Source of the DNA: Armatimonadota bacterium | GTDB taxonomy: Bacteria > Armatimonadota > Fimbriimonadia > Fimbriimonadales > Fimbriimonadaceae | Assembly (NCBI GenBank): GCA_025360125.1 | Contig: JANYCU010000021.1 | Coordinates: 163,271-227,270, forward strand | Direction: 5' to 3' | DNA: 64,000 bases | In this document: one piece after another, positions 36,020 through 59,181 of the stretch | How positions within the stretch are numbered: the first letter of the stretch is position 1 | Layout: every line of letters begins with the position of its first letter | The notes under the pieces: generated by a model | Database searches by the model: none | Seen by the model: only the letters and a program-made list of their open reading frames with translations | What the model was told of the DNA's origin: nothing | Made by a program: the position numbers and the translations under genes

Positions 36020-36962
36020 AAAGTTCAGCGCAATAAGCTTCCTCCCGAAGCTGGAAATTCCGTTATCAATCCTTCCGGCCGCGCGAAAGTCGCTCAAGTT
36101 CGCGGTCATCACCGACCTCCACCACGGCCTCGCTCCCGATGCGATGATGCGCATCAACGCCTTCATCCAAGCAGTCAACGCTCGGCGGGATCTCAGTTTC
36201 GTTCTGCAGATGGGGGACTTTTGTTACTCGGACGCAGGCGCGCAGGAGCTGCTCAACGCGTACAAAGCGATCAAGCTCCCCACCATCCACGTGCTGGGCA
36301 ACCACGACATGGACAAGGTGACCAAACCCACCGCGGTAGAGAGAATCGGCATGAAGAGCCCCTACCGAACCCACGACTACGGCGACTACCGCTTCGTCGT
36401 TTTGGACCTCAACCACTTCAAAAAGAACGGCGACCTGGTCTCGTACGCCAACGGAAACTACTTCACCGATAACGCCACCCACAATTGGGCCGACGCCGAG
36501 CAGCTTGGGTGGCTGGAACGGACGTTGATGACGTCGAAGAAGCCCGTTGTGCTGATCTCGCACCAGCCGCTGGGTTTCGCTGACCCCGCTGTTAACGGGA
36601 CGGGGCAAAGTTTGCCGCCCGAGCAGCAGCAGATTTTGGACATCGTGGCCCGTTGCGGTCGTTTGAACCCGAAAGGGGCGGTTGCGGTGTCGATGTTTGG
36701 GCATCTGCACGTCGATCGGTTAGAGCATGTTTCGGGCGTTCCTTATTTGTGCGTCAACTCGGCCAGCTACTTCTGGTCGTCGGGGATGTGGGCGTACTCG
36801 AAGCCGCTGTTTGCGTTTATGGAGCTGACGACGGATGGTCGTCTGGTGGTCGAGGGGGTCGCGGGGGAATTTGTGAAGGCTCCGCCGAAGGCGTCGGACG
36901 GGGTGGTGGGGCGGTCGGCGTCGATTTCGGGGCGGGATTTAGGGCTAGGGGGTAAATCATGA
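36000..36962 (+). CDS. Tat-exported calcineurin-like metallophosphoesterase
   Basis: MTRRDLLKFSAIS; ITDLHHG, LQMGDFCY, VLGNHDMD, ISHQPLG, FGHLHVD. Confidence 0.9.
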   Translation: MTRRDLLKFSAISFLPKLEIPLSILPAARKSLKFAVITDLHHGLAPDAMMRINAFIQAVNARRDLSFVLQMGDFCYSDAGAQELLNAYKAIKLPTIHVLGNHDMDKVTKPTAVERIGMKSPYRTHDYGDYRFVVLDLNHFKKNGDLVSYANGNYFTDNATHNWADAEQLGWLERTLMTSKKPVVLISHQPLGFADPAVNGTGQSLPPEQQQILDIVARCGRLNPKGAVAVSMFGHLHVDRLEHVSGVPYLCVNSASYFWSSGMWAYSKPLFAFMELTTDGRLVVEGVAGEFVKAPPKASDGVVGRSASISGRDLGLGGKS

Positions 36963-54741: not shown

Positions 54742-54750
54742 CTTAAAAAC

Positions 54751-54795
54751 TGGTGGACCGTGAAGGGCTCGAACCTTCGACCCGCTGATTAAGAG
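54751..54795 (-). other. tRNA-Lys(CTT) 3' fragment, probable attachment site
   Basis: Minus strand CTCTTAATCAGCGGGTCGAAGGTTCGAGCCCTTCACGGTCCACCA: anticodon loop through CCA, but no 5' half (expected GCTGA is TTAAA). Confidence 0.8.
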
Positions 54796-54958
54796 TTTAA
54801 TGCGCATACTTCCGAGCGCGTCCAGGTCCGTCCGCTTAGGTTCAGATATTGAACCTATTATTCCGACATTGTCCAAGATCTTCTGCGACTTTCCGCCGAG
54901 TAAGCGGTAGATAGGCGGTAATTATTGCTCCGATAAGCGGTATTATTACGTACAGATT

Positions 54959-56080
54959 ATGGCACGGCAGCGACGGGAACGAGGGGCGGGATCAATATAT
55001 AAACGAGGCGCCTCATTCATTGCTCAAATGAAGTACGAATGCCCTCAAACAGGCAAAATAAAGACCAAGCAGGTCTATGGCAAGACTCAGGGCGAAGCTG
55101 TGGCGGCGCTGAAGCAGCTGCAAGCTTCCCTTCTCGCTGGCAATGCTCCAACCACGGGCAAAAGCCTCACGGTTTCCTCCTGGATCGACCTTTGGCTCGA
55201 AGACTATATCAAGCCGAACCGGGAAGTCAAAACGTACCAGTTCTACAAGCTCATGGCCGACAAGCGAATCAACCCATACATCGGCCGCATGGAACTCAAT
55301 AAGGTAACTCCGACTGACGTCAGCCGAATGTTCAAGAGCATTGAGAAGGACAAGGCGACTCCGAACACGGTTGCTGCTGTTAAAAGAACGCTCCGCGCCG
55401 CATATGGGGTCGCCATTAAATACGGGCACGTGAACGATAACCCGGTTTCAAAGACATTTGCCACAAAAGTGAAGCGAGAACCGAAAGTCTATTTCGACTC
55501 AGACCAGGTCAAGGCTCTGCTCAAATCGCTTCAGGGATCTCCGATTGAGAGCCTGGTCAAATTCACACTTGCGACAGGTATGAGAATTGGTGAGGTCACC
55601 GGAATCACCTGGGACAATGTCGATCTCAAACAGAAAACCGTCCTTGTTCAAAATCAACTTCAGCGCATAAATAAGGAACTGATTCTAAAGCGGCTCAAGA
55701 CTGAAAAAAGTATTCGCACCATGCCGCTTGTCGGCCATTCGCTCGATGCTGTCTTGTCCGAAGAAGCTATGAAGAATCAGAAGGCGAGTCAGAATGCTTT
55801 GAACCTAGTCTTTACGAATCCTTGGGGACGACCCTTTGATCAAAAGTACGTGAGTGAGCACCTTCATAGGGTCCTTGAGACAGCAAAGCTCCCAAAGACA
55901 GGTATGCACTCGCTTAGGCACTCTGCCGCAACGTTTATGCTGATGGCCGGGCTCAATCTCCACCAGGTCAGTCGCTATCTTGGGCATTCGCAAATTGCTC
56001 TTACATCAAACCTATATGGACATGTTCTTGATGGCGCGATGCGAGATGCCGCCGAACAACTTCAGCAAGCCTATTCGTAG
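54959..56080 (+). CDS. Tyrosine recombinase / integrase
   Basis: TLATGMRIGEVTGITWDNVD; GMHSLRHSAATFMLMAG; RYLGHSQIALTSNLYGH. Confidence 0.95.
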   Translation: MARQRRERGAGSIYKRGASFIAQMKYECPQTGKIKTKQVYGKTQGEAVAALKQLQASLLAGNAPTTGKSLTVSSWIDLWLEDYIKPNREVKTYQFYKLMADKRINPYIGRMELNKVTPTDVSRMFKSIEKDKATPNTVAAVKRTLRAAYGVAIKYGHVNDNPVSKTFATKVKREPKVYFDSDQVKALLKSLQGSPIESLVKFTLATGMRIGEVTGITWDNVDLKQKTVLVQNQLQRINKELILKRLKTEKSIRTMPLVGHSLDAVLSEEAMKNQKASQNALNLVFTNPWGRPFDQKYVSEHLHRVLETAKLPKTGMHSLRHSAATFMLMAGLNLHQVSRYLGHSQIALTSNLYGHVLDGAMRDAAEQLQQAYS

Positions 56081-56097: not shown

Positions 56098-56775
56098 TTA
56101 GTTGACCAGTTGAACCTGGGGAATTGAATAGTCCTCAAAGGTCCTCAGCGTTTCACCAACATTGAGGGCATCAAGCCAATTGCCTGCCACCTCGGTGCCA
56201 CTTTGTTCAGCAAACCACTTTCGCATGAACTGGCTCGGAATCGGCTCGTCTTTGGCAACAACTACGAATGACTGACTTTGAGCATTGCAATAATATGCGT
56301 ATTCGCGCCCCTGCACAATAGCTGCTAAATCGCCCAGATCCGACCGAACTGGTTCCCATTTCATTCCGCTTGGAAGAGTTAATTGATGCTTCTCAGACAA
56401 GACAAAATGTAAGTGTGCATGTCCTGTTCCGCAAATGATCCGATCGGAACCGTTGGCAGAACCATGCTCAAATTGATGGACGAATCGGCCATACCTAGTT
56501 GACAAAAAGGTGGCCAATTTAAACCGAAGGTGGTTTATCTCCGCATACGGAATGGCTTCAATCATCTCTGCAACAGAAATAAAGTGCTCCTTAGGGCAAA
56601 GAAGCCAATGTCCTTTGCTTAATGGGGCCAAGCTAGGTACGCAGGCTAGCGAATCTGTCTCGAAAGCAATCCTTCGGATATATTCTCCGCCAACGTTGTT
56701 AAAAATAAGATCGTTCAGGCTATCGCCTTTGATCTGGCTGCAAATTGCGCACTGCTTTTTGTTCATTAAGTCCAT
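56098..56775 (-). CDS. HIT-family nucleotide hydrolase/transferase-like
   Basis: CAICSQ start; SKGHWLLCPKEHFISVAEM; GTGHAHLHFVLSE histidine triad. Confidence 0.78.
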   Translation of the reverse strand: MDLMNKKQCAICSQIKGDSLNDLIFNNVGGEYIRRIAFETDSLACVPSLAPLSKGHWLLCPKEHFISVAEMIEAIPYAEINHLRFKLATFLSTRYGRFVHQFEHGSANGSDRIICGTGHAHLHFVLSEKHQLTLPSGMKWEPVRSDLGDLAAIVQGREYAYYCNAQSQSFVVVAKDEPIPSQFMRKWFAEQSGTEVAGNWLDALNVGETLRTFEDYSIPQVQLVN

Positions 56776-58740
56776 TTATGGGTTCAAGTGAGGATGACTG
56801 TAATCCCTCAAGTCCTTCGTAAATTGTTGGAAGTCTAGTTCTGAAATTGTAAGCCCTTGAGCCATATTTGTCGATATGTCCTCCATGAGCTTCTTCGCCG
56901 CTGGAAAATTCGTGGCTTTTTTAGCCGCGACCAGTTTGGCGAATCTCACAAGCTCTGGACGCACAAATCTCTCCGTGCATAACGCCGCTTGTTCCAGAAA
57001 CGCTGTTTTCAAGTCAGATCCATTCGCTTGCTTATGGGCCTTTTGGATAATTCGCTTCCTTGCTTCGAGATCGGGTGGCCCGACGGCTACAAGATGATCC
57101 ATGCGGCCTCCTCTACAAACAGCCGAATCCATTGATTCAAGATGGTTTGTGCACACCACGAAGACAATCCTACCGCTGTCGTGGAGCTGCTGTAACTTTG
57201 GCAACATGCAGGCTGTGAGGAATGCGGTAATATTTCTTGATTGCTCGTTCTCCGACGACGGTTGTCGATCTCTGAAAAGCTCATCGCATTCATCGAAGAG
57301 TACTACCGTCTTTCTGAGTTTACCAAGTCGGTCGAACACTACGCGTGATTGGGACTCAATTAGATCTAGTCCACGGTCGACGAAATCACCGGGACTCAAT
57401 GAAACTATTGGCCATGACAACGCACCTGCGATTGCCTTTACAATCGTGGTTTTGGACGTCCCGGGAGGTCCAAAGAGTAACAGTGAGTTTGAGCTTCCAT
57501 TTATAGGCGGGACCTGTTGAGGATGATTAAGGATTGGCCGTATTATTTCTTTGTCTATATAAGTCAAAATTGGTGACTTTGAATCGACCTCGCCTTCGAT
57601 CAAGAAAGTGCTCCAAGCCAGGTATGACGGCCAGTCAACATCCCCGGGCCTCTGGAACGAGAAAGTTTTCAGTGCTGAATTACTATTCAACTCGTCCACA
57701 AACGCAACATATTCTCGGGCAAAATCAATGACGAGGGCCGAAGTCCAAGACTCTATCATCCTAGTGCCATACACATGGTCGCTACACCATCCTAGGTGGG
57801 GCTCAGTACCGCCTGAGACATGCACTGCCGATTTCTGAATGTAACTAGCTGCCGAGATCGCTTTGGGCAGGACTTCCCTTCTAATAAATTCCTGGTCATT
57901 GGCATTCCCTCTGCACCATAGCTGCCTTGCTCCCCGTACAACTGCCCACCCAACTTCGTATGTGGAAATTTGAGGATAGGTCTCAGATCCTGCGCTATGG
58001 TGAGTCATAACCCAACCGAAAGGCCAGCAACCGCTAGAATCCTGACTTTCCAAGCATGCGCTTAGCGCCAAACGCGCGGACGCTTGATCCTGAATTTCAC
58101 CAAACCCTGAAAGAATTACTGAGCAAAACCCAAGGGCTACAAGTTCAGCGGGACTTATATCTTCGATGGCCTTTTTTGAAAGTAGCTTTGTCGTTTCTTC
58201 ACGGGTCACTTGGATAAGTTTTTCTTTGAGCTCTTCTGCCGCACTTGCATCAGCATGCGATAGACAGTCGAGCGCATCAAGCACGTTGAAGAGGATATAA
58301 GGGTGTATTCGCGAAGCGGGATCTAGTTGCGGATGGTGTATAAGTTCACTTAAAGCAAACCTGAGTTGAGTTTCAGCTTGTGTTGCGGTAGCACATCCAG
58401 TTTTCAAAGCGGTAGCCATGGCCTTACAAAGGAGCGCCAAAGTCAGTGGGTGCGATTTTCCGTCTTCCGGGCTTGCCATTGAGGACGCCAATGAGAGTTT
58501 GTGTTGCTCAGATGTGACTTCTGGGACGATTTCCTTTAGTATCTGTTCCTTCTGTCCGGAGGTGAGGGAATAATGGTCATCAAGACACAAGCTGGAAAGG
58601 CTGTAGAGCGAGCGGAAAGTGACTGTCGGATTCCCTTTCTGATTTGGATGGCTATCTCGTTGATACGTTGACCTCCAGAAGCATTTCTCCGGTTGATTGT
58701 AAAGCGATAATGTAGCTTTCACAGCTTGTTCCGAAACCAC
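56776..58740 (-). CDS. AAA+ ATPase with long N-terminal alpha-helical domain
   Basis: LLLFGPPGTSKTTIVKAIAGAL Walker A; TVVLFDECDELF Walker B; MDSAVCRGGRMDHLVAV; directly abuts HIT gene (TAA-ATG). Confidence 0.85.
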   Translation of the reverse strand: MVSEQAVKATLSLYNQPEKCFWRSTYQRDSHPNQKGNPTVTFRSLYSLSSLCLDDHYSLTSGQKEQILKEIVPEVTSEQHKLSLASSMASPEDGKSHPLTLALLCKAMATALKTGCATATQAETQLRFALSELIHHPQLDPASRIHPYILFNVLDALDCLSHADASAAEELKEKLIQVTREETTKLLSKKAIEDISPAELVALGFCSVILSGFGEIQDQASARLALSACLESQDSSGCWPFGWVMTHHSAGSETYPQISTYEVGWAVVRGARQLWCRGNANDQEFIRREVLPKAISAASYIQKSAVHVSGGTEPHLGWCSDHVYGTRMIESWTSALVIDFAREYVAFVDELNSNSALKTFSFQRPGDVDWPSYLAWSTFLIEGEVDSKSPILTYIDKEIIRPILNHPQQVPPINGSSNSLLLFGPPGTSKTTIVKAIAGALSWPIVSLSPGDFVDRGLDLIESQSRVVFDRLGKLRKTVVLFDECDELFRDRQPSSENEQSRNITAFLTACMLPKLQQLHDSGRIVFVVCTNHLESMDSAVCRGGRMDHLVAVGPPDLEARKRIIQKAHKQANGSDLKTAFLEQAALCTERFVRPELVRFAKLVAAKKATNFPAAKKLMEDISTNMAQGLTISELDFQQFTKDLRDYSHPHLNP

Positions 58741-59181
58741 CTTAACCCAGGCGCAATCAATGTACTCTTCTTTGAAATCTTGACCTATTTTAGCCCCCTC
58801 TCACGATCACAAACAAGTGCGACCGGAGCGAGTCTGGATTATACGTACTCCAATCACGGTAAGTCAACAACTTTTTATCTGCATAGCCCGAATAGCACCA
58901 ATCGGTTTCGTAACTTCGTTACAGCAACCAGCACCTATGCGACTGAGCGACTGAGCCTTTCCCAGGGAGCAATATGAGCTGACTTATGAAGAATTAGGGA
59001 AGTTGTAGAACCCAAATTGCAGCGTAATGTGTATTAAATCGGCTAAACAGCCGACAGAGATTCCATCTCAACAGTTCGGAGCCAAAAGCCCGTTCCAACT
59101 AGCCCTTCACTCTGTCAAGTCCAATGTTCTCAATAAACTATCGTTCAACTAGCAAGATTGCGGATAAGATGTTTATTAGTC

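What the first reader, a model, noticed from the sequence alone, without database searches (positions are those of the whole stretch)
56098..58740. HIT hydrolase + AAA ATPase pair on an integrase-bearing element: candidate novel defence or regulatory module
The AAA stop and HIT start are adjacent (TAA-ATG), showing tight coupling. The AAA protein has a ~380-aa helical N-terminal region with no domain I recognise. The pair lies next to a tyrosine integrase and a tRNA fragment, where defence cargo is common. A sensor AAA plus a nucleotide-handling HIT effector would be an unusual combination.
Basis: partly seen in the sequence, partly recalled or inferred. Interest (0 to 1): 0.72.

Follow-up and report, generated by a model that had tools for sequence, protein, structure and literature searches.

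The report
Mobile AAA-ATPase plus CWF19-like HIT pair
On a mobile DNA island sits a rarely seen but recurring pair of genes, an ATP-driven protein machine and a nucleotide-handling enzyme shaped like a human splicing factor, which is probably an undescribed bacterial defence or nucleotide-control module.

Summary
A 654-aa AAA ATPase (56776-58740, -) is followed with no gap by a 225-aa HIT protein (56098-56775, -), beside a tyrosine integrase. The "tRNA fragment" is a real attachment-site remnant: 47 bp identical to the 3' part of the intact tRNA-Lys gene on another contig. The pair is co-conserved: 5 of 6 full-length AAA relatives found in named genomes, and 1 of 3 opened on plasmids, have the HIT gene directly downstream. 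It is not core: 0 of 100 relatives have the full AAA, and 2 of 290 other genomes of the phylum a strong HIT. The HIT protein is not an ordinary HIT: fold and sequence match the C-terminal region of spliceosomal CWF19 proteins (Z 14.6-18.1, against 11.1 or less for other HITs), with HxHxH intact. The AAA N-terminus is helical, with a tentative profile match to squalene-hopene cyclase repeats. A sister arrangement replaces HIT by a DUF4406 enzyme plus a dikinase-like protein, in prophages and rhizobial plasmids. Partners are repeatedly nucleotide enzymes. Best reading: a mobile, nucleotide-targeting AAA-plus-enzyme module, probably defence. Function is untested; a metabolic role (ThyX/DHFR context in Bacteroidales) remains possible.

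The parts
56776..58740 (-). AAA ATPase gene, 654 aa, GTG start
   Evidence: ORF; Pfam AAA 1.3e-22; full-length relatives L002-L007, L039
57571..58740 (-). N-terminal domain of the AAA protein (residues 1-390), helical, QxxxGxW motif at 233-239; tentative alpha/alpha toroid
   Evidence: no Pfam family; helical model; hhalign to squalene-hopene cyclases score 33.7-38.2 against best 24.0 of 100 column shuffles
57082..57483 (-). AAA domain (residues 420-553): Walker A 424-431, Walker B 479-487, arginine-finger positions invariant
56098..56775 (-). CWF19-type HIT protein gene, 225 aa; CxxC 9-12, HAHLH 119-123, C-terminal CwfJ_C_2-like region
56407..56421 (-). HIT motif HAHLH codons
54959..56080 (+). 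tyrosine integrase, 373 aa
   Evidence: Phage_integrase 1.3e-26
54750..54796 (-). attachment-site core: 3' part of tRNA-Lys(CTT), one end of the element
   Evidence: 47 bp identical to C55:33459-33505, where the intact gene lies
54899..54921 (+). putative integrase arm-type repeat, imperfect copy at C55:33380-33402
58838..58867 (-). promoter-like site TTGACT-18-TATAAT, 11 of 12, about 100 bp upstream of the AAA start
   Evidence: consensus scan only; 3 sites found, 3.1 expected in shuffles

Best explanation
A mobile two-gene operon carried next to the integrase of an island inserted at tRNA-Lys. The first protein is a classical AAA ATPase (Vps4/spastin/FIGL1-like motor) with a helical N-terminal domain; the second is a zinc-type HIT nucleotidyl hydrolase/transferase with the extra C-terminal domain of CWF19 proteins. 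Most likely the AAA ring binds and controls the HIT enzyme (or an infection-linked substrate through its N-domain), and when triggered the HIT enzyme, through covalent nucleotidylation of His121, attacks a nucleotide or nucleotidylated molecule, so that phage or other invaders cannot replicate; in related loci MazG/PRA-PH, dCTP-deaminase-like, DUF4406 or dikinase-like enzymes extend or replace this nucleotide step. Shown: gene order, intact catalytic motifs, co-conservation, patchy and mobile distribution, predicted folds. Inferred: physical interaction, trigger, substrate and defence role.
For: Co-conservation: the AAA query returned 7 loci in named genomes, 6 with the family's N-domain, 5 of those 6 with HIT directly downstream; 7 of 13 N-domain AAA loci in all, every one within 22 nt, four overlapping by 4 nt. 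AAA and HIT identities correlate over the 7 pairs (r 0.67; 26 of 5040 relabellings as high). Patchiness: strong HIT (E<=1e-15) outside the query genomes in 2 of 290 of the phylum, then 1 of 247, 2 of 294, 0 of 147, 0 of 246, 0 of 395 in five other samples (samples overlap). Full-length AAA in 0 of 100 relatives. Catalytic residues conserved. Defence or mobile neighbours of relatives: DndB and GmrSD-type Orf5 in L006, TIR-NACHT in L086, Cap4/LmuA-like in L002 (weak), prophage terminase in L059; the likely other half of the island carries ArdC, an Mrr-like nuclease, a T4CP-like and a ZorA-like protein. Precedent for AAA plus nucleotide enzyme: RADAR (PMC9994260, passages).
Against: No phage assay exists. 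HIT stands without the AAA in 10 of 17 strong HIT loci, and the AAA without HIT in 6 of 13, so neither strictly needs the other. In Bacteroidales the pair sits in a ThyX - AAA - HIT - PRA-PH - DHFR order among ordinary genes, which suits metabolism. In L040, L131, L132 and L134 HIT sits with a cysteine desulfurase or class V aminotransferase and other biosynthetic-looking genes. No relative in 50,697 named phage records for the HIT or for the sister N-domain. PADLOC hits for the AAA cover the ATPase domain only.
Confidence: 0.5

Rival explanations
1. A nucleotide-metabolism or nucleotide-sanitation module: the HIT enzyme and PRA-PH/MazG partners clean up or remake unusual nucleotides, and the AAA is an activase or chaperone for the enzyme set. 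It travels on islands like other accessory metabolism.
For: ThyX-AAA-HIT-PRA-PH-DHFR in Parabacteroides and ThyX-AAA-HIT with a DHFR-like ORF (read by eye) in L004; MazG/PRA-PH in L002, L005, L085, L098, L131-L133; dCTP-deaminase-like gene next to HIT in Streptomyces plasmid L131; PRPP-synthetase-like and Glycos_transf_3 genes with HIT in L040.
Against: Rare and patchy within every sampled clade; neighbours of relatives include Dnd, TIR-NACHT and prophage genes; some of the same enzymes (dCTP deaminase) are also used in defence (recalled).
Confidence: 0.28
2. A biosynthetic or nucleic-acid-modification module: HIT with cysteine desulfurase, methyltransferases, AIRS/PurM-like and dikinase-like proteins makes a modified (perhaps sulfur-bearing) nucleotide, as a small molecule or as a DNA/RNA mark; the AAA helps load or guard it.
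For: Cysteine desulfurase or class V aminotransferase beside HIT in L040, L131, L132, L134 (L040 read by eye); AIRS domain in L096 and methyltransferase-HIT fusion in L086; AAA of L006 beside DndB and Orf5 of a Dnd (phosphorothioation) cluster.
Against: None of those modification genes lies by the window pair; the AAA-bearing loci mostly lack them.
Confidence: 0.12
3. An addiction or plasmid-competition module of the element itself (island maintenance), with HIT as poison and AAA as restraint.
For: Zero-gap operon next to the integrase; presence of the sister form on plasmids typed conjugative.
Against: HIT and AAA occur without each other; no small antitoxin-like partner seen.
Confidence: 0.1

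Closest known systems
RADAR (RdrA AAA ATPase + RdrB adenosine deaminase)
   Same: Two-gene operon, AAA ATPase plus an enzyme acting on mononucleotides; the AAA raises the enzyme's activity (PMC9994260, passages)
   Different: Unrelated enzyme class; no deaminase here; no RADAR model among the PADLOC hits
CWF19L1 / CWF19L2 / Cwf19 (intron-lariat spliceosome proteins)
   Same: Near whole-length fold of HIT plus CwfJ_C_2-like domain (Z 18.1, 17.1, 14.6); sequence E 3.8e-10 to 4e-11 over both domains
   Different: Bacterial protein keeps HxHxH where the aligned human CWF19L1 reads HLQLQ; it is 225 aa and lacks the long N-terminal part of the eukaryotic proteins; no spliceosome
IetAS anti-phage system
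   Same: PADLOC's best match to the AAA is IetA, 4.1e-15
   Different: Match covers the AAA domain only (117-264 of 330); no protease gene beside it; HIT partner instead
Hint/Fhit/Ap4A phosphorylase HIT enzymes
   Same: HIT fold, HxHxH, nucleotide chemistry expected
   Different: Z 11.1 or less; no CwfJ_C_2-like half

Membership tests
HIT superfamily | HxHxH catalytic motif | tested here: met
   HAHLH 119-123; HxHxH in 16 of 17 strong family members, L098 lacks the first His
HIT superfamily | HIT fold | tested here: met
   Z 8-18 to many HIT structures, on a predicted model
CWF19/CwfJ | HIT domain followed by CwfJ_C_2 domain | tested here: met
   Model residues 1-225 align to CWF19L2 665-891; profile covers both parts; but Pfam CwfJ_C_2 itself is hit in only 1 of 13 members
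CWF19/CwfJ | long N-terminal region of the eukaryotic proteins | tested here: not met
   Window ORF starts 8 residues before the CxxC; so it is CWF19-like, not a CWF19
Classical AAA (Vps4/spastin/FIGL1-like) | Walker A/B, sensor 1, arginine fingers | tested here: met
   Invariant in 13 of 13; FIGL1 Z 20.9 over 353-650
Squalene-hopene cyclase type alpha/alpha toroid (N-domain) | toroid fold with QxxxGxW repeats | tested here: inconclusive
   hhalign probability only 27%, though above shuffles; the fold lists were filled by the AAA domain
IetAS | IetA full length plus IetS protease | tested here: not met
   partial match, no protease-like ORF beside it (that IetS is a protease is recalled)
CBASS with TRIP13/Cap6 | CD-NTase and HORMA genes | tested here: not met
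   TRIP13 matched only over the AAA domain; neighbours are integrase and glycosyltransferase-like ORFs
RADAR | RdrA-like AAA and adenosine deaminase RdrB | tested here: not met
   No such match in PADLOC; that PADLOC holds RADAR models is recalled
Anti-phage defence system | protects cells from phage | not testable with these tools
   needs plaque assays

The most novel reading that the evidence does not exclude
A new class of nucleotide-centred bacterial immunity built around a family of bacterial CWF19-like HIT enzymes, governed by an AAA ATPase with a toroid-like sensor domain, with interchangeable nucleotide enzymes (MazG, dCTP-deaminase-like, DUF4406, dikinase-like). The spliceosomal CWF19 proteins would then descend from, or share origin with, enzymes of bacterial mobile conflict systems.
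Probability: 0.25. Interest if true: 0.82.

Novelty: new variant of a known kind. Interest (0 to 1): 0.6.

Why it matters
AAA-plus-nucleotide-enzyme modules are a growing mode of phage defence; this would add a new enzyme class (HIT) and a new AAA N-domain, with a modular partner set. It would also give the CWF19/CwfJ family, whose activity in splicing is poorly defined (recalled), apparently active bacterial relatives that can be purified and assayed. Both are directly testable.

Tried and rejected
Housekeeping locus: rejected for the window's clade, full AAA in 0 of 100 relatives and strong HIT in 2 of 290 other genomes of the phylum, neither with the AAA on the fetched stretch. Ordinary HIT hydrolase: rejected by fold ranking. 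IetAS, CBASS-TRIP13: rejected, AAA domain only. Phage-borne gene: HIT not in 50,697 phage records, nor in viral contigs with window peptides; sister N-domain and sister DUF4406-dikinase not in the phage records either, only in viral contigs. Pfam scan of 13 N-domains: no family in more than 1 member; PDB profile search: nothing below E 0.36, squalene-hopene cyclase at E 5. Dikinase identity: group 1 reaches PEP-synthase structures only at E 0.0084, group 2 reaches none, a mixed alignment reaches none, and the two groups match each other only over 24 columns; 'dikinase-like' is therefore a motif-based label. Controls for the N-domain comparison: unrelated profiles scored 16.6 and 17.6, reversed 17.5. 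Literature: searches returned no paper; others returned lists without a HIT-AAA module in titles or abstract starts; passages of PMC10853773 and PMC7159879 searched for HIT, PPDK, DUF4406, MazG and (second only) CwfJ, none found. So 'not in print' rests on these searches of an open-access library only. The mirror-tree with 7 pairs is small, and Spearman is weaker (0.48). Rfam gave only two sub-threshold chance-level matches.

Full report
What is there. Two minus-strand genes lie head to tail: an AAA ATPase (56776-58740, 654 aa, GTG) and a HIT-like protein (56098-56775, 225 aa) whose ATG follows the AAA stop TAA without a gap. A promoter-like site (11 of 12) lies about 100 bp upstream of the AAA start, but the scan finds no more sites than shuffles. 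The ATPase motifs are complete: GPPGTSKT 424-431 and VVLFDECDE 479-487, and the sensor and arginine-finger positions are invariant in 13 of 13 family members. The nearest solved folds to residues 353-650 are FIGL1, Vps4 and spastin (Z about 19-21).

Mobile setting. The integrase (54959-56080, +) is real. The 47 bp at 54750-54796 equal the 3' part of an intact tRNA-Lys(CTT) gene at C55:33460-33535 of the same genome, and an imperfect arm-type repeat lies on the inner side of each copy (54899-54921 and C55:33380-33402). The window ends at the end of contig C22. The orientation fits one island running from 54750 rightwards through the end of C22 and on to C55:33505; that the contigs join is inference. 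The C55 side holds ArdC, an Mrr-like nuclease, a serine recombinase, a T4CP-like ATPase, a Replic_Relax protein and a tubulin-like/MotA cluster with weak ZorA matches.

Co-conservation. The AAA query found 7 loci among named genomes; 6 carry the family's N-domain (L002-L007; L008 does not), and 5 of these 6 (two Solirubrobacteraceae, a Bacteroidales, a Pyrinomonadaceae, a Mycobacterium sp.) have the HIT gene directly downstream; the sixth, a Myxococcales locus (L006), has none. On plasmids 516 records matched, mostly over the ATPase domain; I opened 3 AAA hits reaching beyond it: one (Parabacteroides, L039) has HIT, two (rhizobial L041, L042) do not. Of 26 viral-contig loci 3 carry the N-domain (L059-L061), none with HIT. 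In total 7 of 13 N-domain AAA loci, the window included, have HIT; the spacing runs from a 4-nt overlap (L002, L003, L005, L007) through 0 (window) and 1 (L039) to 22 nt (L004). AAA and HIT identities correlate over the 21 pairs of these seven loci (r 0.67, 26 of 5040 relabellings as high; Spearman 0.48).

The other partner. In 5 of 13 N-domain loci (L041, L042, L059-L061) the AAA is followed by a DUF4406-type domain and a protein with PPDK/PEP-synthase-like motifs, fused in four of the five (DUF4406 was scored by Pfam in L041 and L042 only, the three viral ones by alignment). L059 lies between a prophage terminase (gpA) and a portal-like ORF, the latter read by eye. A second dikinase-like type, often fused to PRA-PH/MazG, accompanies HIT in L002, L003, L085, L098 and L133. 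The label dikinase is weak: PEP synthase at E 0.0084 for one group, none for the other.

The HIT protein. The model (pLDDT 82.4, pTM 0.84) matches CWF19-like proteins of the intron-lariat spliceosome over nearly its whole length: 8ro1_L1 Z 18.1 (rmsd 2.9, 179 aligned), 6id0_U Z 17.1 (rmsd 3.2, 202 aligned), 3jb9_c Z 14.6 (rmsd 3.6, 199 aligned); the best ordinary HIT has Z 11.1. By sequence the family profile finds CWF19-like protein 1 first (E 4e-11; 3.8e-10), across both the HIT part and the C-terminal part (psQflR...dWR). The human protein has HLQLQ where the bacterial ones have HAHLH, so the bacterial family looks catalytically competent. Pfam CwfJ_C_1 matches 11, HIT 10, CwfJ_C_2 1 of 13 members at E<=0.1; the window protein itself reaches none of these three.

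The N-domain. No Pfam family, no solved relative by sequence. The model (pLDDT 76.7) gives about a dozen long helices. A QxxxGxW motif (233-239) has Q and W invariant in 13 of 13. Profile comparison with four squalene-hopene cyclases from the same phylum (4 of the 5 genomes with a match; the fifth was a short fragment) scores 38.2 (probability 27%) or 33.7; 100 column shuffles reach at most 24.0, reversal 17.5, two unrelated profiles 16.6 and 17.6. I call it a tentative alpha/alpha toroid.

Distribution. Full-length AAA: own genome only among 101 (the matches in the other 27 genomes lie within the ATPase part of the protein). Strong HIT (E<=1e-15): 3 of 291 in the phylum including the own genome (searched at 1e-8 with 16 matching genomes; the other 13 are weaker), 3 of 249 including two query genomes, 3 of 295 including one, 1 of 148, 1 of 247 and 1 of 396, the last three being the query genome itself; samples overlap. 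This is the pattern of an accessory, transferred gene.

HIT without the AAA. Of 17 strong HIT loci (score above 100, fragments and duplicate fetches dropped) 10 have no adjacent AAA: HIT - membrane protein - dikinase/PRA-PH (L085, L098; L133 with a methyltransferase), HIT with an AIRS-domain gene (L096), methyltransferase-HIT fusion with a PurM-like (by eye) and a TIR-NACHT gene (L086), HIT fused to a membrane-like segment (L097, by eye), HIT with cysteine desulfurase or class V aminotransferase (L040, L131, L132, L134), the Streptomyces locus L131 also with a dCTP-deaminase-like gene. The shared theme is nucleotide chemistry on mobile or conflict-prone DNA.

Mechanism. HIT enzymes work through a nucleotidyl-histidine intermediate (established knowledge); His121 is the middle histidine. 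AAA rings remodel proteins. The most economical model is that the AAA controls the HIT enzyme, which then destroys or converts a nucleotide species on demand, as RdrA controls the ATP deaminase RdrB in RADAR (PMC9994260, passages read). Interaction, trigger, substrate and outcome are inferred. The main rival is accessory nucleotide metabolism, favoured by ThyX - AAA - HIT - PRA-PH - DHFR in Parabacteroides.

Novelty. PADLOC has no model for the HIT gene and only ATPase-domain matches for the AAA. Ten literature searches in an open-access library showed no description. I file it as a new variant of the AAA-plus-nucleotide-enzyme kind; the CWF19 link is the surprising part.

Noticed in passing
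L115 9612-19975 and L116 1-679 (G000:C55:9612-20678): Zinc-ribbon, Tubulin_2 and MotA/ExbB (weak ZorA) genes in a row on the likely other half of the island: a candidate Zorya-like or tubulin-based conflict cluster.
   Followed up: partly
L125 1462-4440, L128 4605-7347: A 450-aa relative of the group-2 dikinase-like domain sits beside an HD dGTPase-like ORF (by eye) in two viral contigs; others (L126, L127) lie in phage replication clusters.
   Followed up: no
L086 3864-8970: TIR-NACHT protein, PurM-like protein and a methyltransferase-HIT fusion in a row in another genome of the same phylum.
   Followed up: partly
L131 4392-10704, L132 4449-10741: Closely similar Streptomyces plasmid clusters: MazG-like, Exo_endo_phos-methyltransferase fusion, LysR regulator, dCTP-deaminase-like, HIT, hypothetical protein, cysteine desulfurase.
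   Followed up: partly
L040 2603-11353: CWF19-type HIT in a Rhizobium leguminosarum plasmid cluster with thymidylate-kinase-like, PRPP-synthetase-like, ribokinase-like, cysteine-desulfurase-like and Glycos_transf_3 genes; looks like a nucleoside pathway.
   Followed up: partly
window 36542-36629: ARAGORN calls an 88-base tRNA-Val with the anticodon at position 37, an unusual geometry that may be a false call.
   Followed up: no
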